In this document: piece by piece, positions 29,537 to 48,618 of the stretch | Layout of the letters: every line of letters begins with the position of its first letter | Numbering within the stretch: the stretch's first letter is position 1 | Source: Hymenobacter rigui | GTDB taxonomy: Bacteria > Bacteroidota > Bacteroidia > Cytophagales > Hymenobacteraceae | Direction of reading: 5' to 3' | NCBI RefSeq assembly: GCF_003944715.1 | Contig: NZ_RWIT01000002.1 | Coordinates: forward strand, 558,001 to 622,000 | DNA: 64,000 nt | Notes under the pieces: model-generated | Databases searched by the model: none | Seen by the model: the letters and a program-made list of their open reading frames with translations, nothing else | Told to the model about the DNA's origin: nothing | Program-made: the position numbers and the translations under genes

Positions 29537-30628
29537 CTATTTTTCCTGCGGACGCGCCTTCAGGCGGCCCTGTGACACGCCCATCCAGTTGGCCATGTGG
29601 AAAAGCAGGCGCGCGCCCACTATAGCGTTCCACTCCGTGTCGCCGGGGGCTACTTCGTTCAGGTCGCAGCCGATGATGGTGCGGCCGGAGCGTACTACCA
29701 TCCGAATCAGGTACAGAGCCTGCTCAAACTCCAGGCCGCCAGGTACGGGCGTACCGGTGCCGGGGCACAGCTTGGGGTCGAGACCGTCAATGTCGAAGCT
29801 CAGGTACACCTTCTGGGGCAGCTGGGCCACAATTTTTTTGCACTCCTTCTTCCAGGATTTACCGCCCAGCATCTCATTTTGCAGAAACCGGTCGGTGAAC
29901 ATGGTCACGCGGCCGTTGCTTTGGGCGGCGTACTCGGCCTCTTGCTGGCAATAGTCGCGGATGCCCACCTGCACCAGCTTTTTCACTTGGGGCAGCTTCA
30001 GGGCATTGTACATGATGGAGGCGTGCGAAAACTCGAAGCCTTCGTAAGCCGGCCGCAGGTCGCAGTGCGCGTCAATCTGCAGAATCCCGAATTCCTCGTG
30101 GCGCTCAGCCAAAGCGTGCAGGTAGCCCAGAGGCGTGCTATGGTCGCCGCCCAGCACTACAACGCCCTTACCGGCATCCAGCAAGGCACCCGTCTTCTTT
30201 TTCAGCCATTCCAGCAACGCCTGGCCGCGCTGGTTGATGCGGGTGGGCACATCCACGAACGAGGCGTGGGTTTCTTCCGGCTCGCCGTCTTCCAGCCAGC
30301 CAATGTACTCCTCGGCCAGGGGGCGCAGGCTGTGGCTTTCGGCCGCAATTTTCTCGTCGGGCTCTTCCATAGCCAGGCCCATCCGCCAGGCTTCAGGCAG
30401 ATCCGGGTCGTAGAGGTCCACTTGCAGGGAGGCGGTGCGCATGGCCTCAGGGCCGGCGGCAGTACCCGCGCGGTAGGATACAGTTACTTCCCAGGGAACA
30501 GGTACTACCACTACCTGAGCCTCTTCCGGCGTAAAAGGAAGGCCGTAGAGGCCGCCAGCCGTGTCGCCCAAGGCATTAGGGTCGAAACTGGCCAGTTTAC
30601 GTTCCAGAGCAGATGCAGAGTCAGCCAT
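29537..30628 (-). CDS. Agmatinase/arginase (ureohydrolase) family enzyme
   Basis: The ATG at 30628 (MADSASALERKLASFDPNAL) gives 363 residues. The di-manganese site of ureohydrolases is complete: VVVLGGDHSTPLGY, LQIDAHCDLRPAYEG and LSFDIDGLDPKLCPGTGTPVPGG. The family hydrolyses guanidino compounds (agmatine, arginine, formiminoglutamate, guanidinobutyrate), releasing urea or formamide. The protein is about 50 residues longer than classic agmatinase, mainly through an insertion around residues 75-125. Members like this are common in Bacteroidota, but the true substrate cannot be told. No polyamine genes are adjacent; the chemosensory operon lies just upstream on the same strand. Confidence 0.88.
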   Translation of the reverse strand: MADSASALERKLASFDPNALGDTAGGLYGLPFTPEEAQVVVVPVPWEVTVSYRAGTAAGPEAMRTASLQVDLYDPDLPEAWRMGLAMEEPDEKIAAESHSLRPLAEEYIGWLEDGEPEETHASFVDVPTRINQRGQALLEWLKKKTGALLDAGKGVVVLGGDHSTPLGYLHALAERHEEFGILQIDAHCDLRPAYEGFEFSHASIMYNALKLPQVKKLVQVGIRDYCQQEAEYAAQSNGRVTMFTDRFLQNEMLGGKSWKKECKKIVAQLPQKVYLSFDIDGLDPKLCPGTGTPVPGGLEFEQALYLIRMVVRSGRTIIGCDLNEVAPGDTEWNAIVGARLLFHMANWMGVSQGRLKARPQEK

Positions 30629-30774
30629 TGTAATCAAATGAAAAGTGAGAAGTGAGTTGTATAACTACTGACAACGGCAATGGCCCCGGTCCGCCGTTGC
30701 TGAGGCCCTTATGGCTTCAGTTTCAGCATCGGAGGCCATGTTGCCTGCAAGCAGTTGCGACTTATGCCGCTGGG

Positions 30775-31474: not shown

Positions 31475-33106
31475 TTATGGTCGTTTGGCTAAAAACAGTC
31501 GAGTTAACGCGGGCACATCGAGCACCAGGCACACCTGCCCGCTACCCAACAGCGTAACGCCGCCAAACAAATCAATAGTATCCAGCGGTTTGCTCATGGG
31601 TTTTACCACGATATCCTGCTGGCGCAAAAACCGGTCAACGACAAGGCCGAGCCGGCGGTTATTATACTTGACAATGATGATATCCTGCCGGCCCTGCACA
31701 TCAGCCTTTACAGCGGGCGGCAAAGGCCCGTCGCCGTTGTGCAGCAGCTTGCGCAGGGATACCACCGGTACGTTTTCTTCCTGCACGCGGGTAATCAGCA
31801 CGCCACCCACTACGTTGAAGTTATCCGGCATCAGCGACACCACCGAGTCAGTGTGCATGAGCGGAATGGCGTAGTTGCGTTGGTCCAGCTGAAATAGCAG
31901 GGCCCCTTTCACGGCAATCGACGTGGGCAGTACCAGGGTAAAGGTGGTTCCCTGGCCCAGTACCGACTCTACCCGCAGCTGCCCGCCGAGCGAGTCAATG
32001 GCCAGCTTCACCACATCCAGGCCCACGCCGCGCCCCGAAATTTCGGTTACTTCCTTCGCCATCGAGAAACCCGGCTCAAACAGAAACGCCCGCACCGCGT
32101 CGTCATCGAGGGTGGCGGCTACGTTGGCGGCTACCAGTCCCCGTTCCACGGCCTTCCGCCGCACGCTCTCCACGTTAATGCCCCGGCCATCATCCTGCAC
32201 CTGAATCAGCACGTCGTCCCGCTCGGTCTGGGCCGACAGGGTCAGATGGCTCTGGGCTGGTTTACCGGCGGCTTCCCGCTCGGCAGGCGTTTCCAGCCCG
32301 TGCCCAATGGCATTGCGCACCAAGTGTAGCAGGGAATCGGTGATGATCTGCAGAATATTGCGGTCAATCTGGATGTCCTCCCCGGTCATGGTCAGCTCCA
32401 CATCCTTTTTCTCGGCCGCAGCCACATCGCGCACTACCCGCGGAAATTTGCTGAACAGGGAGCCTACGCCTACCAGGCGAGCATCCATCACGCTGTACTG
32501 CAGCTCGTCGGCAATCCGCGAAAGGTGCGTGGCGGCGGCTACCAGAGCCGGGTTGCCAATTTCCTGACTCAGTGTGAGTACCCGGTCCCGGTCAATAATC
32601 AACTCGCCCACCAGATTCATCAGGTGGTCGAGCTTTCTGATTTGAATATATACCAGATCCGACAGCTCCAGCTTACGGTTGGCGTCTTCGTCATCCTCCT
32701 CTTCCTGTTCCAGCACGGGCTCTTCGCCGCGCACTAGCCGGTCCAGGTTGTCCATGAGACGCCCTACTTCGGGCAGGTCCTCATTGGCCCCCACCGCCCG
32801 AATCATTTCACCAATCGTATCAATACCCGTGAAAAGCACCGGTACCACAGACCCCGTAAAGGATTTCTCCTTACTGCGGATCAGACCGAAGATGGTTTCC
32901 ATGTGGTGGGCCAGCTCGCCAATGGCATTGTAGCCCATGGCCCGGGAGTTGGACTTGAGGTTGTGCATGAACCGGAACAGCTCATTCAGGGCGGGCTCGT
33001 CGGTGGGGTTACGCTCCAGCTCACTGATGTGGCGGCTCATGGCGTCGTAATACTCCAACGCTTCCGCCATGAACATTTCCCGGTATTCCTGTTCCCGTGA
33101 CTTCAT
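31475..33106 (-). CDS. cheA: Chemotaxis-type histidine kinase CheA
   Basis: The protein has 543 residues. Domain order: an HPt domain (1 to about 105) with the phosphorylated His48 in FMHNLKSNSRAMG; an acidic linker (EEPVLEQEEEDDED); a dimerisation domain (about 150-210); an ATPase domain with N box HLVRNAIGHGLE, G1 VQDDGRGIN and G2 GRGVGLDVVKLAID; and a CheW-like domain (about 405-540). There is no separate CheY/CheB-binding P2 domain, hence the short length. In the N box Gly replaces the more usual Asp (normally NxxDHG). Its start codon overlaps the cheB stop codon (ATGA), indicating translational coupling. Confidence 0.94.
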   Translation of the reverse strand: MKSREQEYREMFMAEALEYYDAMSRHISELERNPTDEPALNELFRFMHNLKSNSRAMGYNAIGELAHHMETIFGLIRSKEKSFTGSVVPVLFTGIDTIGEMIRAVGANEDLPEVGRLMDNLDRLVRGEEPVLEQEEEDDEDANRKLELSDLVYIQIRKLDHLMNLVGELIIDRDRVLTLSQEIGNPALVAAATHLSRIADELQYSVMDARLVGVGSLFSKFPRVVRDVAAAEKKDVELTMTGEDIQIDRNILQIITDSLLHLVRNAIGHGLETPAEREAAGKPAQSHLTLSAQTERDDVLIQVQDDGRGINVESVRRKAVERGLVAANVAATLDDDAVRAFLFEPGFSMAKEVTEISGRGVGLDVVKLAIDSLGGQLRVESVLGQGTTFTLVLPTSIAVKGALLFQLDQRNYAIPLMHTDSVVSLMPDNFNVVGGVLITRVQEENVPVVSLRKLLHNGDGPLPPAVKADVQGRQDIIIVKYNNRRLGLVVDRFLRQQDIVVKPMSKPLDTIDLFGGVTLLGSGQVCLVLDVPALTRLFLAKRP

Positions 33107-34188
33107 TGTACAGCTACGGGTTGAAGGCGGGAAATACCAGCAGTGCCAGTGCTCAAGCTCACTGGCCGGGTTGGCACATGACTGATCAGTGCCCCTGCAA
33201 TGCCTGAGAGAGGGTGTACTTCGGTGGCTAGTCCGGCTTGAATAACTGATTTCGGCATGCCGAATACGGCTGAAGAGGCTTCATCCTGCACGATAACCGT
33301 ACCACCCGCCTGCCGAATGGCCCGGGCACCCGCCGTGCCATCCTGCCCCAGGCCCGTAAGAACCACTCCCAGCACATTGCGGCCGGCGAGCCGCGCGGCT
33401 GACTGCATCAGGATGTCTATACTGGGCACATCTAGGCTGGCTTCACTGACAAAATCGGTTTGCCAACCCAGCCAGGGGCTGCCGCTAACTGGCTGCACAG
33501 TTATGTTGTAGCCACCAGGAGCCACCAGAACCCGACCCGCCACAAGGCGGCTACCGCTGCCGGCTGCTTCCACGGGCAAGTGCGTAATGCGACGCAAGCG
33601 TTCTACCAGAGTATCGGTGAAGTGGGCCGGCAAATGCACCGCCACCACAATAGCCCAGGGAAAACTAACCGGAATAGCCTGCAGTACCGTTTCCACGGCC
33701 GGTGCTCCGCCTGTAGAGCCACCGATAACCACAATCCCCTGTGGGGGTAGCGGAACCGTCCGCGGCCGACTGATAGCAGCCGGTAACGCGGCTACTGCAC
33801 GGGGACGGGCTGCCAACAGCTTCCGCCTGAGCTGACTGTTCCATTCAGCCAGTTCGGGGCCGGTTGTGGGGACAGCAGTGATATAATCATACACACCCAA
33901 ACGTGTGGCTTCCCGCAGCATACCTAGCAATGGAACCCCTGCACAATACAGCAGTACCGGTACCTGAAACTGACGTTGCAGCTGCTCCAGCCCGGAAAGC
34001 TCGTCCTCAGTGACTAGCGCCACTCCCGGACGCAAACGCCGGGCCAGTACCGACAGCTCAGTGGTCGACATGGCAGTACCTACTACTTCCAGACCGGAAG
34101 TAACAGATAACAGCCGCGTCAGTGCTGTCCGCACGGAGGTGGGCAGGTTACCGAGTAGCAGGGTGAAGGAAGGAGGTGAAACGGACAC
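33103..34188 (-). CDS. cheB: CheB methylesterase with degenerate receiver domain
   Basis: CheB removes methyl groups from receptor glutamates. There is no ATG near the expected start. I take the GTG at 34188 (361 residues, reading MSVSPPSFTLLLGN); a TTG at 34236 is an alternative. The C-terminal esterase has a complete triad: Ser158 in VIGGSTGGAP, His185 in VVAVHLPAHF and Asp283 in LTGLGQDGTAG. The N-terminal receiver-like domain lacks the acidic pair (Gly13-Asn14 in LLLGNLPTS), has no clear phospho-acceptor Asp (VALVTEDE) and has Val in place of the conserved Lys (TAVPTTG). It should therefore not be switched on by phosphorylation in the usual way. It lies between cheY and cheA; no cheR is seen. 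Confidence 0.9.
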   Translation of the reverse strand: MSVSPPSFTLLLGNLPTSVRTALTRLLSVTSGLEVVGTAMSTTELSVLARRLRPGVALVTEDELSGLEQLQRQFQVPVLLYCAGVPLLGMLREATRLGVYDYITAVPTTGPELAEWNSQLRRKLLAARPRAVAALPAAISRPRTVPLPPQGIVVIGGSTGGAPAVETVLQAIPVSFPWAIVVAVHLPAHFTDTLVERLRRITHLPVEAAGSGSRLVAGRVLVAPGGYNITVQPVSGSPWLGWQTDFVSEASLDVPSIDILMQSAARLAGRNVLGVVLTGLGQDGTAGARAIRQAGGTVIVQDEASSAVFGMPKSVIQAGLATEVHPLSGIAGALISHVPTRPVSLSTGTAGISRLQPVAVQ

Positions 34189-34245
34189 GGGGGAATGTAA
34201 ACGCACGGGGAGCACACGGCTGAGGCACGTGCGCAATCAAACGGG

Positions 34246-34629
34246 TTAGGCTTGGTCGGATGCAGCTTCCTGCAGCGCGCTACCCACAATCTCCAGCACT
34301 TTTTCCTCAGAAAAAGGCTTCACGATATAGGCTGTAGCACCGCTTTCCAGCGCCTCGTTCACAATAACTTCCTGGCCCACGGCCGAGCACATCACCACTT
34401 TTACGTCGGGCTGCTCCTGCCGAATGCCTTTAAGTACATCCAGGCCGGTATTATCGGGCAGAATTACATCAAGGGTAATCAGGTCGGGTTTAGTAGCGGC
34501 GGCCATTTCCAGCGCCTGCTGGCCGTTGGCTGCCTCGCCTACCACCTCGTAACCAGCGTCGGTAAGCATATTCTTGAGCATCGTGCGCATGTAAAAAGAG
34601 TCGTCGACGATGAGGATGCGGTTTTTCAT
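34246..34629 (-). CDS. cheY: Response regulator CheY
   Basis: A single-domain receiver of 127 residues. Conserved residues are in place: the acidic pair in ILIVDDSFYMRTML, the phospho-acceptor Asp in LITLDVILPDNTG, Ser in VVMCSAVGQE and Lys in AYIVKPFSEEKV. It is the obvious acceptor for phosphate from the CheA encoded in the same operon, with CheC as phosphatase. It lacks an output domain, so its target is a protein; since no flagellar gene is in the window the target may be gliding or some other process (inference). Confidence 0.95.
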   Translation of the reverse strand: MKNRILIVDDSFYMRTMLKNMLTDAGYEVVGEAANGQQALEMAAATKPDLITLDVILPDNTGLDVLKGIRQEQPDVKVVMCSAVGQEVIVNEALESGATAYIVKPFSEEKVLEIVGSALQEAASDQA

Positions 34630-34680: not shown

Positions 34681-35208
34681 CTATGCTTTTGTACGGCTGC
34701 CGGACCCGGAAGATTCCGTTTTCGGCTGCAGCTGCATGATTTCGGAAGGAGTCAGCAGTTTCAGCATATCGAGCACTACAACAATGCGGTCCTCGATTTT
34801 GGCAATGCCCTCAATGTATTTGTCGTGAATGTTGATGTCCTGGATGAACTCCGGCGCCTTTTCGATGATGGATTGCTGGATAGACAGCGGCTGCGGCACC
34901 TCGCGTACCATAATGCCAATGGTGTACTCTTTAGCCTCAATGGCCATAGTGTACGACACCGCAGGCATCTCCTGACCGGCGGTGCGCAGACGGAACCGCT
35001 CTTCCAGATCAATGATGGCAATGATGTCGCCGCGCAGGTTGGCAATACCCTTCACGAATGGCGGCGTTTTGGGCATTCGGGCAATTTCCGGGGTAATGGT
35101 TACCTCCTTTACTTGCTCAATCCGAATCCCATACTCCTCCTCTCCCAGCCGGAACACAATCAGCTGGATAATAGGATCTTGTTTGACGCTTTTTTCAGAG
35201 TCAGGCAT
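34681..35208 (-). CDS. cheW: Chemotaxis coupling protein CheW
   Basis: The ATG at 35208 (MPDSEKSVKQDPIIQLIVFR) gives 175 residues with one CheW domain (about 12-155), which links receptors to CheA. Typical segments are VFRLGEEEYGIRIEQVKEV, PPFVKGIANLRGDIIAIIDLEERF and the final IAKIEDRIVVVLDMLKLL. A short Ser/Gly/Lys tail follows. It lies 68 bp after the receptor gene and 51 bp before cheY. Confidence 0.94.
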   Translation of the reverse strand: MPDSEKSVKQDPIIQLIVFRLGEEEYGIRIEQVKEVTITPEIARMPKTPPFVKGIANLRGDIIAIIDLEERFRLRTAGQEMPAVSYTMAIEAKEYTIGIMVREVPQPLSIQQSIIEKAPEFIQDINIHDKYIEGIAKIEDRIVVVLDMLKLLTPSEIMQLQPKTESSGSGSRTKA

Positions 35209-35276
35209 TCCTGAGGAAATAACGTTTTTCCGGGCCGCTGCTGACAACGGCCCGGGAGAACGGAGAACATATTAAC

Positions 35277-38200
35277 TTATTTGGCTTTCCGCTTAGTACC
35301 GCGTGCTTTAGGGGCCGAAGCCTCTACCGGCGCTTCTGCAGCCGGCACCGATTTGGCAGCACGCCGGGAGCCAGACTTCCGGCCAGCTTCCTGTACCTCA
35401 GGTGTGATAGCGGCGGCGGGCGTAGTGGGGGCGACAGCAGTATCGCGCCGCGAAATACGTTTCCGGGCGGGAGTTGCTGGCTCCTCGGCCACAGCGGGTG
35501 TAGCGGTCCGACGACGAACCGGCTGGGCCGGTGCAGGGGCGGAAGCCACCGGACGGGCGGCAGAACGGTGGCCTAGCGCCCGGCGCCGAATGGGTTCGGG
35601 CTCCGGTTCGGGCTCCGGCTCCAGATCTTCCATCAGCTGGAAGGCGGACAGCCCCAGTTGCAGGTCGTCGGCAATGTCGGTGAGCTTCTGGCTGCTGGTG
35701 GTCAGTTCCTGCATGCTGGTGGACAACTGCTTGGCGGTGCTGGCTACCTGCTGCGTACCGGAGGCGGTTTGCTCGGCAATGGCTACCACTTCTTCCACGT
35801 ACTTTACTACGTCGCCAATCGAGGTTTTCTGAATCTCGGTGGCGGTCAGAATGTCGCGGGAAGTGCGCAGGGTTTCACCGGACGAGGTGGCAATGTTCTT
35901 AAAGGCTGAGCTGGCCTCGAAGGTGGCATTCTTCCCTTTCAGTACCCGGCCTTCCATGGTGCTGATGGCGGAGGCGGCCGACGTGGTATCCTTCTTTACG
36001 TCCTCAACCAGCGTGGCAATTTCCCCGGCCGATTTGCGGGAGCCTTCGGCCAGCTTGCGGATTTCTTCGGCTACTACTGCAAAGCCACGGCCGGCTTCCC
36101 CGGCACGGGCGGCTTCGATGGCGGCGTTCAGAGCCAGCAGGTTGGTTTGGGCCGCAATGTCGGTGATTACGCCCAGCGACTTGCTGATTTCTCCGGACCG
36201 GGTGCTTAGTACTTCAATGGTTTTAGAGGTCTGGGCGGCGGCGCCGGCTATTTCCTCCATGTTTTTCACCACTTCCGCTACCGTTTTCAAACCCAGTTGC
36301 GAGGTCTGCTCACCCAGAATAGCTGCCTTAATGCCGACATCGGCCTTACCGGCAGTTTCCTTGGTGGCCTGCATGATTTCTTCAATCAGCTTGAAGGCCT
36401 GGTCCGTTTTGAGAGCCTGGTTCTGAGCGCCTTCGGCCATCTGCTGCATGGCCAGGGCCACATCAACGGTTACCCGGCTCATCTCCTGCCCTTTCACTAC
36501 CATTTCCTCCGACGATTCCCCTACAATCTGCGACGACTCGTTGATTTCGCCCAGCAGTTCATTGAGGTTGTCCACGGCCAGATTCAGAGCGTCGGCCATG
36601 GCGCGAATGTCACCGGTCGTTTCGATTTCCACCTGCTGCTGCAGGTCGCCTTCCGAAATGGCCCGCACCACGCGCGACACTTCCAGTACCGGCGAGGCAA
36701 TACTTTCGATGAGGGCGTTGAGCGTATCCACCAGTTCTTTCCAGGAACCCGATACGTCCGTTACTGTGGCACGTTCCGTCAGTTTGCCTTCGCCCCCGGC
36801 TACGCGGGCTACGCGGCTTACTTCCGAGGCCAAGCGGTTCAGGTCGTCCACCATGCGGTTGATGGTATCGGCCAGTTCGGCTACTTCACCCTTGGCTTCC
36901 AGCGTCAGCTTCTGGGTCAGGTCACCCTGCGATACGGCGGTTACTACTTTCACAATGCCCCGCACCTGCGTGGTGAGGTTGGCCGCCATCGTGTTTACGT
37001 TGTCGGTGAGGTCTTTCCACACCCCGCTTACGTTGGGCACATCGGCCTGACCGCCCAGGCGGCCGTCGGTGCCTACTTCCAGGGCCACGCGGGTTACCTC
37101 GCCGGCAAACACGTTGAGCGAGTCCACCATCTGGTTGATGTTGTCCTTCAGGTCGAGCAGCTCGCCTTTTACATCAACGGATACTTTCTGGCTCAGGTCG
37201 CCGCGGGCTACGGCGGAAGTTACGTTGGCAATGTCGCGCACCTGGCTCGTGAGCGAGGCGGCCATGAAGTTTACGTTGTCGGTGAGGTCCTTCCAGGTGC
37301 CGCGCACGTTGGGTACCACGGCCTGACCGCCAAGGCGGCCTTCGGTGCCTACCTCGCGGGCCACGCGGGTTACTTCGTCGCCGAACGTGTTGAGCGAGTC
37401 CACCATCTGGTTGAGGTTTTCCTTCAGCTGCAACAGCTCACCGCGCACGTTTACTGTCACCTTCTGGCTCAGGTCGCCGCGGGCTACGGCGGTAGCCACG
37501 TTGGCAATATCCCGTACCTGACTCGTCAGGTTCGAGGCCATCGTGTTTACGTTGTCGGTGAGGTCTTTCCAGGTACCCGATACGCTGGGCACGTTGGCCT
37601 GGCCGCCGAGAATCCCTTCGGTACCTACTTCGCGGGCCACGCGGGTTACTTCGCCGGCGAAGATGTTGAGCGAGTCCACCATCTGATTGAGGATGTTTTT
37701 CAGGTCGAGAATCTCGCCTTTCACATCTACCGTCATCTTTTGGGTCAGGTCGCCCTTTGCTACGGCCGTGGCTACGTTGGCAATGTCGCGCACCTGACTC
37801 GTCAGGTTCGAGGCCATCGTGTTTACGTTATCCGTCAGCTCTTTCCAGGTACCACCAACGCGGGGCACCGAGGCCTGGCCGCCGAGGCGGCCTTCGGTAC
37901 CTACTTCGCGGGCCACGCGGGTTACTTCGTCGCCGAAGATGTTGAGCGAGTCCACCATCTGGTTGAGGATGTTCTTCAGCTCCAGGATTTCTCCCTTCAC
38001 ATCCACGGTCATCTTCTGGCTCAGGTCGCCGCGGGCTACGGCGGTGGCCACGTTGGCAATGTCCCGCACCTGCAAGGTCAGGTTCGAGGCCATGTTATTT
38101 ACGTTGTCGGTCAACTCCTTCCACACGCCGGCTACGTTGGGTACGGAGGCCTGGCCGCCCAGCTTACCGTCGGTGCCTACTTCCAGTGCCACGCGGGTTA

Positions 38201-39635
38201 CTTCGCCGGCGAACAGGTTGAGCGAGTCCACCATCTGGTTCAGGTTCTGCTTGAGCTGCAGCAGTTCGCCCTTTACATCGACGGTGATTTTCTGCGAAAG
38301 GTCGCCCTTGGCTACGGCCGTGGCTACGTTGGCAATGTCGCGCACCTGCAAGGTCAGGTTCGAGGCCATGTAGTTCACGTTGTCGGTCAGTTCCTTCCAC
38401 ACCCCGGCCACGTTCGGCACCACGGCCTGACCGCCGAGGCGACCTTCGGTACCTACTTCCTGCGCCACGCGGGTTACTTCGCCGGCGAACAGGTTGAGCG
38501 AGTCCACCATCTGGTTCAGGTTCTGCTTGAGCTGCAGCAGTTCGCCCTTTACATCGACGGTGATTTTCTGCGTCAGGTCGCCCTTGGCTACGGCCGTGGC
38601 TACGTTGGCAATGTCGCGCACCTGCAAGGTCAGGTTCGAGGCCATCGTGTTTACGTTGTCGGTCAGCTGTTTCCACACGCCGCCCACGTTGGGTACGGAG
38701 GCCTGGCCGCCCAGCTTACCTTCGGTACCCACTTCCTGCGCCACGCGGGTTACCTCACCGGCAAACAGGTTGAGCGAGTCCACCATCTGGTTCAGGTTCT
38801 GCTTGAGTTGCAGCAGCTCGCCCTTCACGTCCACGGTGATTTTCTGGCTCAGGTCACCGCGGGCTACGGCCGTGGCTACGTTGGCAATGTCGCGCACCTG
38901 AGAAGTCAGGTTCGAGGCCATGTAGTTCACGTTGTCGGTGAGGTCCTTCCAGATGCCGCCCACGTTGGGTACGGAGGCCTGGCCGCCCAGCTTGCCTTCG
39001 GTGCCTACTTCCTGCGCCACGCGGGTTACCTCGCCGGCGAACAGGTTCAGGTTATCGATGGTCTTGTTGATGGTTTCGGCCATCACTTTGAAGTCGCCCG
39101 ACACCGGAATCTGGAAGGTTTCATCCAGATTGCCTTTGCTGATGTTCTTGAGCACTTTGCCTACCTCCAACACCGGCACGGCAATGCTATCCACCAGGCC
39201 GTTGATGTTGTTGATCATGTCGCGCCAGAAGCCGGCGGCATTTTCGCCGGAGGCGCGGGCTTTCAGGTTGCCTTCCACCCCGGCCACTTTGGAAATGCGC
39301 GATACTTCGCCTCCTACCCCGCCAATCATCTCCACCATGGAGTTATAGGCTTCGGCAATTTCGGCGAAGATGTCGTCGTTCTGCTTGGTCAGGCGCACCG
39401 ATACGTCGCCCTTTTTAAAGGCATCGAGGGCATACAGTACCCGGTTCAACTGGTCGTTGATGTAGTCGGGGTCCTGAGCGGCGTATTTTCCGTTGGCTTC
39501 CCCGCGTTTCCGCGTGTGGTTGCCATTGGAGGGCGCAGTTGTTGTCAGGCTACCTTTGGTAACGGCGGCAACAGGAGCAGGAGTTGCCGCGGGAGTAGCC
39601 GGGCGGGTGGTTTTGGGCGTCTTAGCTGAAGCCAT
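35277..39635 (-). CDS. Soluble poly-HAMP methyl-accepting chemoreceptor
   Basis: The ATG at 39635 gives 1452 residues. No membrane helix is present, so it is a cytoplasmic receptor. After an Ala/Pro/Thr-rich start come divergent HAMP-like units (about 60-195), then eight HAMP units of exactly 92 residues (about 196-932), each with LTDNVNxMASNLTxQVRDIA and EVTRVAxEVGTEGxLGGQA. This variety is best known from fungal group III (Nik1/Os-1) osmosensing kinases. One more divergent unit leads to the kinase-control domain (about 1060-1330) with the conserved tip [21 protein letters not shown] Glu-Pro run ([10 protein letters not shown]) and a basic Ala/Pro/Arg/Lys tail of about 115 residues end the protein. 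It is the first gene of the chemosensory operon. Confidence 0.93.
36840..39047 (-). repeat. Eight tandem 276-bp units inside the receptor gene
   Basis: The landmark GAGCGAGTCCACCATCTG recurs at 37116, 37392, 37668 (one base changed), 37944, 38220, 38496 and 38772, exactly 276 bp apart, with divergent edges at 36840 and 39048. Each unit encodes one 92-residue HAMP module. Neighbouring units 38220 and 38496 differ by only a few bases over their first 150 bp, which indicates recent duplication or gene conversion. The array is expected to change copy number by recombination. Confidence 0.95.
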
Positions 39636-44895: not shown

Positions 44896-47800
44896 ATGTC
44901 GTTTCGTTACTCGCGCATGCTGCTGGCTGGTCTGGGCCTGGCAGCCTCTACTCCGGTTTTTGCTCAGTCGGCCGCGCCGGCCCACACGGTTTTTTTGCTG
45001 GGCAATACGGCCACGGCGGAGCTGCCCACCGGACATTTACAGGCCCTGCGCCGCACACTGGAGCAGCAAACCGGCCCGTTTACCGTGGTTCACCTCGGTG
45101 ATATTGTAGGCAACGAGGGCCTGGGCTCGGCCAAGGATTCCAGCCAGGCCGGCCAGACGGCCCGCGCCGATGCGCTGATTGCGTTGGTGCAGGGCCTGCC
45201 CAACGGCAAAATCTACTTTCTGCCCGGCGACAAGGACTGGGCTAACTCCGGCCCCGATGGTCTGAAGCGGGTGCGGCGGCTGGAAAAGTATATTGAAGAC
45301 AAGCTGCCGGGCCAGAACGCCTTTCTGCCCACCGGCGGCTGCCCCGGCCCCGAAATAGTGGATGTGGCCCCGCTGGTGCGCTTGGTCGCCATCAACTCGC
45401 CTTGGTGGACGCACCCCTTCGACCGGCCCGAAGCCCCCGACACCGACTGCAAAACCATGACGGTGGAGGAGTTCCGCGAGCAGCTGCAGGATGTGCTGGA
45501 TGAAACAAAGGGCCGCAACGTGCTGCTGGTGGGCCACCAGCCGGTCATCAGCAACGGCGTGTACGGCGGCCACATGCCCCTGAGCCGCCACCTGCTGCCG
45601 CCCGTGGCCGGCACCGTGTACGCCGCCTACCGCCAGAACGTGGGCTCCCCCCGCGACCTGGCCAACCCTGCTTACCAGCAGTTCCAGAAGGAAATGCTGA
45701 ACACCCTGCGCGACCATCCCGGGGCCGTGTACGCCGCCGCCCACGACTTCAGCCTCCAGCTTACCGAGCAGCAGGGCAGCTACCACCTGATTTCGGGCTC
45801 TTTCGCGCAGAAACAACACGTGGGGGCCAACGCCAAGTCCCAGTTCAACGAAGCTGAAGAGGGTTTTTCCCGCCTCGACTACTACGCCGACGGCACCGTA
45901 AAAACGGCGTTTTATACGTTTGACAGCGGCAGCTCGGCCCGGGAGGCCTACGCGGCTACGCTGTTCCGCTCGGCCTGCGGGCCGAAGCAGGCCGGGGTGC
46001 CCGTCAACTCATTCATTCCAGAGTGCCCATCGGCCCCGAAAGGCGTGGCCCAGATGAAGCCCGATGCGCCTTTTGAAGCTACCCAAACACTGGCGGCCGG
46101 CAAGCAGTACGCCGGTACCGGCAGCTCCCGGTTCTGGCTGGGCAAGCTCTACCGTACTTCCTGGACGCAGCCGGTTCAGGTTCGTACCCTCAACCTCGAC
46201 ACCGAAAAAGGCGGCCTGCGCCCCTTCGGCCCCGGGGGAGGACGCCAGACGACTTCGCTCAAGCTCATTGCCGCCGACTCCTCAGAGTACGTGTTCCGCT
46301 CGGTGGATAAGGACGTTACCCGGATTCTGCCGCCGGAGCTGCGCCAGTCGTTTGCCGCCAATGTGCTGCGCGACATCACGCCCACGGCCCACCCCTACTC
46401 GGCGCTGGTAACGGGCTCGTTGCTGGATAAAACTGACATCCTGCACGCTCGGCCCCGGTTGTTTGTGCTGCCCGACAACAACCAGCTGGGCCCGTACCGG
46501 GAGCAGTTTGCCGGCCTGTTTGGCACCTTGGAAGACCGCCCGGTGGACCCCAAGCCCAACCTGCCCGGCTTCGGGGGGGCCGACGAGGTACGCCGCTCGT
46601 TCAGCTTCTTCCGTCAGCTCTACAAAGACAACGACAACCGCATCGACGCCGTGGCCCTGGGCCGGGCGCGGGCGTTTGATATGCTGGTGGCCGACTTCGG
46701 CAAGCACGAGGACAACTGGAAGTGGGCGGGCTTTAAGGACGGCAAGAAAACCGTGTACAAGCCCATTCCGCGCGACCGGGACCAGTCGTTCACGCTCTGG
46801 AACGGGGCTCTGACCTACCTGGCTAACCGGGAATGGGCCGTGCCCAGCATTGAAGGGTTTCAGGCCGAATTCGGCGACATGAAAAGCTTGAACTGGCCCG
46901 CCCGTCACCTGGATAGGTTTCTGCTGCAAAGTCTGAGCCGGGAGCAGTGGCAGGATATTGCCCGCTACATGCAGGAGCGCATCACACCCGCCGCCATCGA
47001 CGAAGCCACCGGCACCCTGCCCGCTGAGTTGAAAACCCTCTCCACCGACGAGCTGAACCGCAAGCTGAAAGCCCGCATCAAGGAGCTGCACAAGGCCTTG
47101 GACGAGTACTACCTGCTGCTGGCCAAGCGCGTGGACGTGGTGGGTTCTAACAAGGCCGAGGTATTCCGGGTTGACCGCCAGGCCGACGGCCGGGTGCGGG
47201 TGCAGCTGTTCGACAAAGCCAAGGAGGGCGACGAGCCCAATGGCCCGGCCCTGTTCGACCGGATCTTTTCGCCCAAGGAAACCGAAGAGATAAGCCTCTA
47301 CGGCCTCGATGGCAAGGATGTGTTTACGGTAACCGGTTCGGCCGGCAAAAGTGTGCTGGTGCGCATCATTGGGGGCGACGGCAAAGACCGGATTTCGGAC
47401 GATTCGCGCGTGAGCGGTTTGCGCACCCTCACCAAGGTGTACGATGTACCCGATACCGACCTGAAGCTGGGTTCGGAGTCGGATAACCGCACCTCCACAC
47501 GTCCCGACGTGAACCAGTACGACCGGGAGCAGTTCGAATTCAACACCTACAAGCCCCGCGCTACCGTCATCGTGAATGCCAACGACGGTATCGGGGTGGG
47601 CGCGGGCGTGGATTTCGTGCGCCAGGGTTTCCGCAAGCCGGGCTTCAAAAACCTGTACTCGTTTGACGTGCGGGGCTCCAGCGGCGGCAATTTTCAGGTG
47701 TCATTGGCTACGCGGCACCGCTACGCCTTTGGCAAGTGGGACGTGGGTGCCCGCACCGAGTATGGCAACTTCTTCCCGTTCTACAACTTCTTTGGGCTGG

Positions 47801-48618
47801 GCAACAACACTACCAAAGACCAGGGCCTCTACGACAACAAATACTATAAAGCCCGCTACAAAGGATTCACGCTGGATGCCTTCACCGAGCGAGTATTCTG
47901 GCAGCGCAGTCTATTCCGCATTGGGCCCAGCTATGAGCAATACACCTCCAGCTATGCCGCCGACAGCTACTTAGGCAAGTTGGAAAATGGGGGTATTCCG
48001 GTACCCGATGACCGTAAGCCCAACACCGACTTTCAACGCCTCATCGGCCTGAATGCGTTGCTGGATGTGGACCTAAGGGACCGGCAGAGCTTTGCCCGAC
48101 GCGGCGTGCGTCTGCGAGCCCAGCATGATACCTACCATCAGCTCAATGGCAACAAGGGTAACTTCGGCCTTACCCAGGGCTTTGCCGAGTACTACGGCAC
48201 GGCCCGTCTGGGCATTCCGGTAACGCTGGTGGTGAAGGGCGGCGGGGCTAAAAACTACGGCAACGACGACGACATTCCGTTCTACAAATTCGCCAACCTG
48301 GGCCTGCGCGAGGGGCTGCGGGGCTACTACCGCACCCGCTTTACCGGCGACGCCAGCCTCTACCTGAACACCGAGCTCCGCCTGGCCCTGGGCCGCGTGC
48401 AGACCTCCTTCCTACCCTTTTCCTATGGCATCTTCGGCCTCTACGACCGGGGCCGGGTGTACTACAAAGGTTCCTCGCCCGGGGGCTGGCACCAGGGCTA
48501 CGGAGCCGGCTTTTACATTGCCCCCGTATCCGACCAGCTGGCCCTATCGGTGTCTTACCAGAAATCGGTGGAAAATGGCCTGATTCAGTTCGGGCTGGGT
48601 TTCCGGTTGGATAACTAG
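44896..48618 (+). CDS. Metallophosphoesterase-like protein with outer-membrane beta-barrel
   Basis: The product is a 1240-residue secreted protein with a signal peptide (1-23, ending VFAQ). Residues about 30-340 resemble a calcineurin-type phosphoesterase: VVHLGDIVG, YFLPGDKDW, VLLVGHQPVISNG and VYAAAHDFSLQ; the usual GNHE and GHxH motifs are altered. The middle (about 560-780) includes DMLVADFGKHEDNWKWAGF and PRDRDQSFTLWNGAL, a pattern that looks like a kinase-fold catalytic loop (inference). The last 350 residues are beta-strand-rich and end in FGLGFRLDN, as expected for a BamA/TamA-like barrel. It would display a phosphatase on the outer membrane. ppx follows after 77 bp. Confidence 0.82.
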   Translation: MSFRYSRMLLAGLGLAASTPVFAQSAAPAHTVFLLGNTATAELPTGHLQALRRTLEQQTGPFTVVHLGDIVGNEGLGSAKDSSQAGQTARADALIALVQGLPNGKIYFLPGDKDWANSGPDGLKRVRRLEKYIEDKLPGQNAFLPTGGCPGPEIVDVAPLVRLVAINSPWWTHPFDRPEAPDTDCKTMTVEEFREQLQDVLDETKGRNVLLVGHQPVISNGVYGGHMPLSRHLLPPVAGTVYAAYRQNVGSPRDLANPAYQQFQKEMLNTLRDHPGAVYAAAHDFSLQLTEQQGSYHLISGSFAQKQHVGANAKSQFNEAEEGFSRLDYYADGTVKTAFYTFDSGSSAREAYAATLFRSACGPKQAGVPVNSFIPECPSAPKGVAQMKPDAPFEATQTLAAGKQYAGTGSSRFWLGKLYRTSWTQPVQVRTLNLDTEKGGLRPFGPGGGRQTTSLKLIAADSSEYVFRSVDKDVTRILPPELRQSFAANVLRDITPTAHPYSALVTGSLLDKTDILHARPRLFVLPDNNQLGPYREQFAGLFGTLEDRPVDPKPNLPGFGGADEVRRSFSFFRQLYKDNDNRIDAVALGRARAFDMLVADFGKHEDNWKWAGFKDGKKTVYKPIPRDRDQSFTLWNGALTYLANREWAVPSIEGFQAEFGDMKSLNWPARHLDRFLLQSLSREQWQDIARYMQERITPAAIDEATGTLPAELKTLSTDELNRKLKARIKELHKALDEYYLLLAKRVDVVGSNKAEVFRVDRQADGRVRVQLFDKAKEGDEPNGPALFDRIFSPKETEEISLYGLDGKDVFTVTGSAGKSVLVRIIGGDGKDRISDDSRVSGLRTLTKVYDVPDTDLKLGSESDNRTSTRPDVNQYDREQFEFNTYKPRATVIVNANDGIGVGAGVDFVRQGFRKPGFKNLYSFDVRGSSGGNFQVSLATRHRYAFGKWDVGARTEYGNFFPFYNFFGLGNNTTKDQGLYDNKYYKARYKGFTLDAFTERVFWQRSLFRIGPSYEQYTSSYAADSYLGKLENGGIPVPDDRKPNTDFQRLIGLNALLDVDLRDRQSFARRGVRLRAQHDTYHQLNGNKGNFGLTQGFAEYYGTARLGIPVTLVVKGGGAKNYGNDDDIPFYKFANLGLREGLRGYYRTRFTGDASLYLNTELRLALGRVQTSFLPFSYGIFGLYDRGRVYYKGSSPGGWHQGYGAGFYIAPVSDQLALSVSYQKSVENGLIQFGLGFRLDN

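What the first reader, a model, noticed from the sequence alone, without database searches (positions are those of the whole stretch)
35277..39635. Soluble chemoreceptor with fungal Nik1-like poly-HAMP array
Eight HAMP units of exactly 92 residues, of the variety known from fungal group III hybrid kinases, are placed in front of a bacterial kinase-control domain with no membrane segment or other input domain. The HAMP array may itself be the sensor, as proposed for Nik1-type osmosensing and fungicide response. Such a receptor would sense something inside the cell (osmolarity, crowding, ligand).
Basis: partly seen in the sequence, partly recalled or inferred. Interest (0 to 1): 0.6.

Follow-up and report, generated by a model that had tools for sequence, protein, structure and literature searches.

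The report
Cytosolic chemoreceptor with long HAMP rod
A small bacterial signalling pathway has one receptor with no membrane or known sensor part, only a long repeated rod of the type that fungicide-responsive fungal kinases carry, so it offers a way to ask what such rods detect.

Summary
The gene is real: 39635-35277 (-), 1452 aa, no membrane segment, no known input domain. The array is longer than reported: ten exact 92-residue units plus a lone HAMP from residue 59, each unit a HAMP pair (about 21 HAMPs), then a long MCP hairpin and a basic tail. Pairs of 92 plus a single HAMP is the published Candida Nik1 layout. Nearest retrieved relatives are bacterial hybrid kinases (best 75-79% per internal unit); no fungal sequence was available, and fungal origin is unsupported. 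The organism is a Hymenobacter. This is its only MCP, heading CheW-CheY-CheB-CheA-CheC; no CheR or FliM was found. An MCP occurs in 204 of 204 family genomes searched; 79 unbroken arrays examined (78 family, one other family) hold 7-15 pairs in strict 92-residue steps, with conserved ends. One genome of another family in the class has a related operon; a Desulfococcaceae locus shows an independent rod-MCP fusion. Best reading: a cytosolic receptor with little or no methylation feedback, input at the rod or its N-cap, output through CheY. The stimulus is unknown; osmosensing and fungicide response are untested.

The parts
35277..39635 (-). poly-HAMP methyl-accepting chemotaxis protein, 1452 aa
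39462..39635 (-). residues 1-58: low-complexity leader, no domain match
   Evidence: variable between species
38910..39461 (-). residues 59-242: N-cap, specialised units 1-2, without the +5 insertion of the kinases
   Evidence: units 86-99% identical to complete orthologues
36978..38909 (-). residues 243-886: units 3-9, 92-aa HAMP pairs, 77-93% identical among themselves
36702..36977 (-). residues 887-978: specialised last full unit 10
36552..36701 (-). residues 979 to about 1028: lone HAMP before the signalling hairpin
35631..36515 (-). residues 1041-1335: MCP kinase-control hairpin, long class
35280..35630 (-). residues 1336-1452: (EP)n stretch and basic Ala/Pro-rich tail
34681..35247 (-). 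CheW
34246..34629 (-). CheY, single receiver domain
33103..34236 (-). CheB methylesterase domain; no Pfam receiver-domain match; CheB absent from 14 of 41 clusters compared
31475..33106 (-). CheA (Hpt, dimerisation, ATPase, CheW domains); only match to the CheA dimerisation domain in the genome
30775..31434 (-). CheC-type phosphatase
29537..30637 (-). arginase-family gene, same strand downstream in 40 of 41 clusters; link to the pathway unproven

Best explanation
It is the sole MCP-type receptor of a small cytosolic chemosensory pathway kept throughout the family around Hymenobacter. A Nik1-type rod of HAMP pairs takes the place of membrane and ligand-binding domains. Shown: architecture, operon, single copy, variable rod length with conserved ends, no CheR or FliM found in the genome. 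Inferred: the rod is a parallel dimer; an intracellular stimulus (solute state, crowding, a small molecule or a partner protein) acts on the rod, perhaps at its conserved N-cap; alternating HAMP states relay it to the hairpin that controls CheA; CheA phosphorylates CheY, which acts on something other than a flagellar motor; CheC removes the phosphate; feedback by methylation is absent or vestigial.
For: Domains and no membrane segment. Gene order MCP-CheW-CheY-(CheB)-CheA-CheC in 41 of 41 clusters compared, CheB in 27. Own genome: one MCP, one CheA, no CheR, no FliM. An MCP in 204 of 204 family genomes, 202 with one match row; the rod was looked at in 80 of these, window included. No CheR match near the cluster in the 41 stretches. 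Rod ends conserved while the middle changes by whole units: 7-12 units in Hymenobacter, 8-15 in the 19 complete arrays of five other genera; two species hold a pair of internal units identical in DNA. N-cap units 86-88% identical to those of the distant G575 homologue, whose CheA is 48% and CheC 38%. A solved HAMP array matches (PDB 9trk, E=1.4e-83, 2.6e-80). Analogues: deleting all HAMPs of CaNik1p activates Hog1p in yeast without a stimulus (PMC3848655, passages); HAMP conformers of Aer2 send opposite signals (PMC3570549, passages and one section).
Against: No function data. The conservation gradient is shallow (G575: N-cap units 86-88%, internal units 82%, hairpin 78%), so it hardly singles out the N-cap. 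CheB is kept in 27 of 41 clusters and two strict methylation-type Gln sites are present in the hairpin against 0.2 expected in shuffles, so covalent modification cannot be excluded. 51 of 61 genus genomes have a CheR-domain match somewhere (50 over the cut-off); the one I read is a CheB-CheR-PAS fusion, and such an enzyme could act on the receptor in those species. The structure model was poor (mean pLDDT 43).
Confidence: 0.6

Rival explanations
1. The rod is a passive spacer and relay. The receptor is held on the nucleoid or another anionic polymer by its basic C-terminal tail and reports on that contact, as FrzCD of Myxococcus does with its basic N-terminus and di-HAMP. (Partly compatible with the best reading.)
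For: In 20 of 20 tails compared (19 Hymenobacter with the window, and G575) the tail is basic, net +11 to +17 after its first 20 residues, pI 10.1 or more; among 30 other window ORFs that I picked as genes only topA ends more basic. G575 keeps the charge without the Ala/Pro richness (6% against 33-52%). In genus g331 the tails are +16 to +21, in g327 +6 to +13. FrzCD precedent: cytosolic, di-HAMP, sequence-independent DNA binding (PMC12077210, abstract with introduction, and discussion).
Against: In genera g329 and g330 (12 of the 20 other-genus loci) the comparable stretch is only 18-33 residues with net +1 to +7, and in g328 it is 38-47 residues with +7, so the long basic tail is not a family-wide feature. 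DNA binding untested. The 50 residues before unit 1, where FrzCD would bind, have median net charge 0.
Confidence: 0.25
2. The rod itself senses osmolarity or crowding, or binds antifungal-type small molecules, as proposed for fungal Nik1 and for the myxobacterial ambruticin sensor kinases AskA/AskB. (A special case of the best reading.)
For: Same 92-residue pair layout as CaNik1p; a paper assigns ambruticin sensing in M. xanthus to a complex of poly-HAMP kinases (PMC7643160, title and passages); no other sensory part present.
Against: That paper states that binding of ambruticin to NIK1 had not been shown (passages). Rod length varies about two-fold between species. The two kinases read here also carry a GAF domain, which the receptor lacks. 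In A. fumigatus TcsC the response to hyperosmotic stress needs the N-terminal 208 residues before the HAMPs (PMC11253588, passages), a part that has no counterpart here.
Confidence: 0.25
3. A horizontally acquired fungal Nik1 rod.
For: Only the shared layout.
Against: Closest retrieved sequences are bacterial, though no fungal ones could be compared; an MCP is universal in the family, and a related rod receptor with a diverged operon occurs in a second family, so it looks old in the class.
Confidence: 0.02
4. An ordinary motility chemoreceptor with standard methylation adaptation whose missing sensor is merely unrecognised.
For: MCP, CheW, CheA, CheY, CheB present; a GldM match (gliding/T9SS) is present in the genome; two methylation-type sites.
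Against: No CheR, no FliM; HAMP units run from residue 59 on; CheB missing in 14 of 41 clusters.
Confidence: 0.08

Closest known systems
Bacterial poly-HAMP hybrid histidine kinases (Rhizobium etli L076, Novosphingobium L075, Anaeromyxobacter oryzae L143, 13 kinases of the own class; AskA/AskB by literature)
   Same: 92-residue HAMP pairs with a lone HAMP at the end; best identity 75-79% per internal unit
   Different: They end in kinase output (GAF-HisKA-HATPase-receiver read in L075 and L076), carry about five extra residues in unit 2, and their N-caps are 34-41% identical in the five compared
Fungal group III kinases (CaNik1p, TcsC, Bos1)
   Same: CaNik1p: pairs of 92 aa plus a single HAMP; rod as presumed sensing part (PMC3848655, passages)
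   Different: Kinase and receiver output; five to six repeats (PMC3848655); no fungal sequence compared here
FrzCD of Myxococcus xanthus
   Same: Cytosolic MCP without an obvious sensing domain, HAMP pair before the signalling hairpin, basic tail (PMC12077210)
   Different: Ten pairs instead of one; basic tail at the other end and not family-wide; the Frz system has a CheR homologue (FrzF)
Aer2 of Pseudomonas
   Same: Soluble MCP with concatenated HAMPs (PMC3570549, passages)
   Different: Aer2 is a PAS-haem sensor (from a reference title in PMC3570549); here no PAS match and about 21 HAMPs
Persicobacter psychrovividus plasmid Che operon (L107)
   Same: Begins MCP-CheW-CheY-CheA; signalling hairpin 51% identical over 294 residues without gaps
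   Different: Five PAS stretches instead of the rod; has CheR and a SpoIIE phosphatase gene

Membership tests
Methyl-accepting chemotaxis protein | MCP signalling hairpin (PF00015) | tested here: met
   E=8.6e-38, over the cut-off; tip nearly invariant in 20 aligned
Methyl-accepting chemotaxis protein | Linked CheA and CheW | tested here: met
   41 of 41 clusters
Methyl-accepting chemotaxis protein | Methylation by CheR | tested here: inconclusive
   No CheR in the own genome; two strict site matches; CheR-domain matches in 51 of 61 genus genomes, mostly in long frames, the one read being a CheB-CheR-PAS fusion
Group III (Nik1-type) hybrid histidine kinase | Tandem 92-residue HAMP pairs ending in a single HAMP, no membrane segment | tested here: met
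   against PMC3848655 and PMC7643160
Group III (Nik1-type) hybrid histidine kinase | HisKA, HATPase and receiver domains | tested here: not met
   No match; so it is not a member
Group III (Nik1-type) hybrid histidine kinase | Fungal lineage of the HAMP units | not testable with these tools
   No fungal sequence retrievable; retrieved relatives are bacterial, PDB 9trk of unstated organism
FrzCD-type nucleoid receptor | No membrane segment, HAMP pair before the hairpin | tested here: met
FrzCD-type nucleoid receptor | Basic N-terminal DNA-binding stretch | tested here: not met
   Leader median net charge 0; the basic tail is C-terminal instead
FrzCD-type nucleoid receptor | DNA binding | not testable with these tools
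   needs a binding assay
Aer2-type receptor | PAS-haem sensor | tested here: not met
   No PAS match

The most novel reading that the evidence does not exclude
A chemosensory pathway without ligand domain, membrane anchor or working methylation feedback, in which a poly-HAMP rod is itself the sensor of the state of the cytoplasm, with natural length variants of 7 to 15 pairs setting its threshold. The same kind of rod was joined to MCP output at least twice (Hymenobacter family and G575; Desulfococcaceae) and to kinase output in bacteria and fungi, making it a general plug-in intracellular sensor.
Probability: 0.25. Interest if true: 0.75.

Novelty: new variant of a known kind. Interest (0 to 1): 0.52.

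Why it matters
What Nik1-type HAMP rods detect, and how fungicides and ambruticin act through them, is still open in the papers I saw. Here the same kind of rod drives a small pathway with one MCP, one CheA and a linked CheY. An MCP is present in every family genome searched, and every intact family array examined has the rod, in lengths of 7 to 15 pairs. In vitro CheA activity of receptor-CheW-CheA complexes is a standard read-out, so the question whether the rod senses, and what, becomes directly testable. It also suggests that such rods were joined to chemoreceptor output more than once, and that a chemosensory system without flagellar switch or dedicated CheR can be kept throughout a family.

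Tried and rejected
Fungal origin of the array: no fungal sequence reachable; judged unlikely on distribution and bacterial neighbours. Hidden input domain in the N-terminus: HAMP units start at residue 59. Pfam hits ATG17_like, SpoIIID, DUF3829, GatB_Yqey and (in G575) HTH_6 on the array: taken as coiled-coil noise, no stretch passes on its own. Structure prediction of residues 49-334: mean pLDDT 43, so no fold search was run; its helix pattern (about two connectors per 92 residues) is only mildly supportive. Persicobacter CheR, CheB and SpoIIE searched in the clusters: CheR matches only its own record; the CheB and SpoIIE matches in all records are probably their receiver domains matching CheY (not checked) and were not counted. 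Literature: searches showed no paper on this receptor or on Hymenobacter chemosensing; several listings were partial (for example 12 of 241), and only the open library was searched. The 2010 HAMP survey of Dunin-Horkawicz and Lupas was seen only in reference lists; whether it already names this architecture I could not check.

Rows dropped: L121 (frame broken inside the array) from trees, module identities and tail counts; it is counted as nine units. L107 from the N-cap and unit trees. Unit 1 of receptors and some last units (the window's unit 10 among them) fell out of the unit tree through my motif filter. L216 has an array cut by a contig end. Of 27 class genomes with HAMP-pair matches besides the four of the genus and G575, 13 were fetched, all 13 kinases by motif; 14 were not examined. 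The unit tree used 5 of the 20 Hymenobacter receptors then held and 8 of those 13 kinases. Unit counts cover 60 Hymenobacter arrays (window included), G575, and 20 of the 84 other-genus family genomes. The genome scan works by short peptide patterns and missed the other genera of the family, so absence from it means little. The class name Bacteroidia, the organism Thermotoga for 2ch7 and the class label 44H are recalled.
Full report
What was checked. The ORF at 39635-35277 (-) exists and encodes 1452 residues. Wrapping the protein at 92 shows ten full units from residue 59 to 978 and a lone HAMP after them; identity at lag 92 is 0.73 and at the other lags from 80 to 104 it is 0.03-0.11. A unit HMM gives ten full units and one partial. 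Pfam finds HAMP_2 ten times and HAMP nine times, then MCPsignal at 1108-1285. Units 3-9 are 77-93% identical to each other at protein level; units 1, 2 and 10 are distinct. No membrane segment was found.

What the array is. The published description of the fungal kinase CaNik1p is four HAMP pairs of 92 residues plus one single HAMP (PMC3848655, passages). The window protein has ten such pairs plus one single HAMP. Solved chains 9trk and 9trj, named 'histidine kinase, Gcn4p' with no organism given, match two of its units at E=2.6e-80 and 4.3e-37. The same two units match 169 plasmid records (112 of them Rhizobium), 60-80% identical in 168; two of these genes were read, and both end in GAF, HisKA, HATPase and receiver domains.

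Relationship of the units. With 168 units from the window, four other Hymenobacter, G575, Desulfococcaceae, Anaeromyxobacter, Novosphingobium, Rhizobium, eight kinases of the own class and 9trk, 38 of 48 receptor units of Hymenobacter and G575 form one clade (support 0.949); the ten outside are units 2 and last full units. Window units 3-9 have best non-receptor identities of 77, 76, 77, 79, 77, 75 and 76%, all to kinases of Novosphingobium, Rhizobium or Anaeromyxobacter. In the N-cap tree the Hymenobacter and G575 caps are separated from the kinases, 9trk and the Desulfococcaceae receptor with support 1.000; branches within the other side are partly unresolved. The window cap is 34-42% identical to the seven of these shown. 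The kinases carry about five extra residues in unit 2 (unit spacings 92 and 97 in most; 93 and 97, 92 and 99, and 88 and 97 in one each), and so do 9trk, by its alignment, and the Desulfococcaceae array (88, 97); the Hymenobacter and G575 receptors do not.

Genome and family. The contig of G044 has the length of a named Hymenobacter mucosus contig with the match at the same place, and 13 of the 17 loci of the named genome scan are Hymenobacter. The window genome holds one MCP, one CheA, HAMP_2 only in this protein, no CheR, no FliM, and a GldM match. All 120 genus genomes searched carry an MCP, 118 with one match row; the extra rows are a weak match in G054 and a partial one in the fragmented G097. 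Over the family 204 of 204 genomes in six genera have one, 202 with one row. In a phylum sample 119 of 395 genomes have an MCP match; among the listed ones of the own class only the four of this genus are strong, and four of another family are weak. In a class sample 32 of 395 genomes match two HAMP pairs at 1e-10: four of the genus, G575 and 27 others.

Operon. In 41 clusters (window, 19 other Hymenobacter, G575, 20 of five other genera) the order is MCP, CheW, CheY, CheA, CheC; CheB sits between CheY and CheA in 27, and an arginase-family gene follows on the same strand in 40. No CheR match is found in these stretches with two CheR queries. CheR-domain matches exist in 51 of 61 genus genomes, 50 over the cut-off; nearly all strong ones lie in frames of about 700-1500 aa (G061 has a split pair in frames of 396 and 149 aa), and the one read is a CheB-CheR-PAS fusion. 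The window CheB has no Pfam receiver-domain match.

Rod length and ends. In 61 frames (window, 59 other Hymenobacter, G575) full units number 10 in 39, 8 in 16, 11 in 2 (one is G575), 9 in 2 (one is the broken L121), 12 in 1 and 7 in 1; all 577 spacings are 92. In the 20 loci of five other genera the arrays have 8-15 units, apart from L216 cut by a contig end, again with only 92 spacings. Two species have a pair of internal units identical in DNA, so units are gained recently. Over 59 Hymenobacter proteins the mean majority-residue frequency is 0.961 for unit 1, 0.950 for unit 2, 0.938 for the last unit and 0.886 for 380 pooled internal units. To the G575 homologue, units 1 and 2 are 88 and 86% identical, internal units 82%, hairpin 78%, CheY 64%, CheA 48%, CheW 46%, CheC 38%. 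Pooling non-matching positions understates the internal units, so the excess at the N-cap is modest.

Signalling hairpin. It aligns to the receptor structure 2ch7 over 285 residues on both sides with small compensating gaps, so it is of the long-hairpin kind; the class label 44H and the organism Thermotoga for 2ch7 are recalled. Its nearest retrieved relative outside the family and G575 is the Persicobacter PAS receptor, 51% over 294 residues without gaps, which heads a similar operon that also has CheR and SpoIIE genes. So the Hymenobacter receptor looks like that kind of receptor with its PAS part replaced by a rod (inference).

Second fusion. A Desulfococcaceae contig carries a rod of the kinase type on two overlapping frames, the second ending in a different MCP domain (51% identity over only 92 residues) and followed by CheB. 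The break between the frames could be real or a sequencing error. With the kinase-type N-cap insertion it indicates that rod-to-MCP joining happened independently.

Tail. In 20 tails (window, 18 other Hymenobacter, G575) the end is basic. In the other genera it differs: +16 to +21 in g331, +6 to +13 in g327, +7 in g328, and short with +1 to +7 in the 12 loci of g329 and g330. A nucleoid tether like that of FrzCD (PMC12077210) is possible for Hymenobacter, not a family rule.

Mechanism. Shown: architecture, operon, distribution, variation. Inferred: dimeric rod, stimulus at rod or cap, two-state relay, CheY output not on a flagellar motor. HAMP conformers of Aer2 send opposite signals (PMC3570549, passages), and CaNik1p without HAMPs activates Hog1p in yeast without a stimulus (PMC3848655, passages), so the rod may hold output in check. 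None of this tells the stimulus. The literature searches showed no paper on this receptor, within the limits given under Tried and rejected.

Changes at the checking stage: the count of short-tailed loci was raised from 11 to 12, the kinase identity range narrowed to best values of 75-79%, and wording on family-wide claims limited to what was examined.

Noticed in passing
window 29537-30637 (-): Arginase-family gene downstream of CheC on the same strand in 40 of 41 clusters across six genera; possibly a functional partner, possibly only stable synteny.
   Followed up: partly
L142:4329-7770: Desulfococcaceae bacterium HSG9: kinase-type HAMP rod joined to a different MCP domain, on two overlapping frames, followed by CheB.
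   Followed up: partly
window HAMP array; L075, L076, L109: Pfam SpoIIID or HTH_6 matches fall on HAMP pairs here. PMC7643160 (passages) reports such partial domains overlapping HAMPs in AskA/AskB as putative DNA-binding parts; they may be HAMP noise.
   Followed up: no
window 33103-34236 (-): CheB with no receiver-domain match and no CheR in the genome: perhaps a decaying or re-used adaptation enzyme; CheB is missing in 14 of 41 clusters and is less conserved (32-61% where matched) than CheA.
   Followed up: partly
PDB 9trk, 9trj: Solved structures of a Nik1-type HAMP array fused to Gcn4, organism not given by the tool; the N-cap has the kinase-type insertion.
   Followed up: no
L121 (G062): Receptor frame broken inside the array in one Hymenobacter genome; real or sequencing error not known.
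   Followed up: no
L107: Persicobacter plasmid chemosensory operon with a SpoIIE phosphatase gene between CheA and CheB: a candidate for non-flagellar output.
   Followed up: no
window 44896-48618 (+): 1240-aa ORF with no Pfam match.
   Followed up: no
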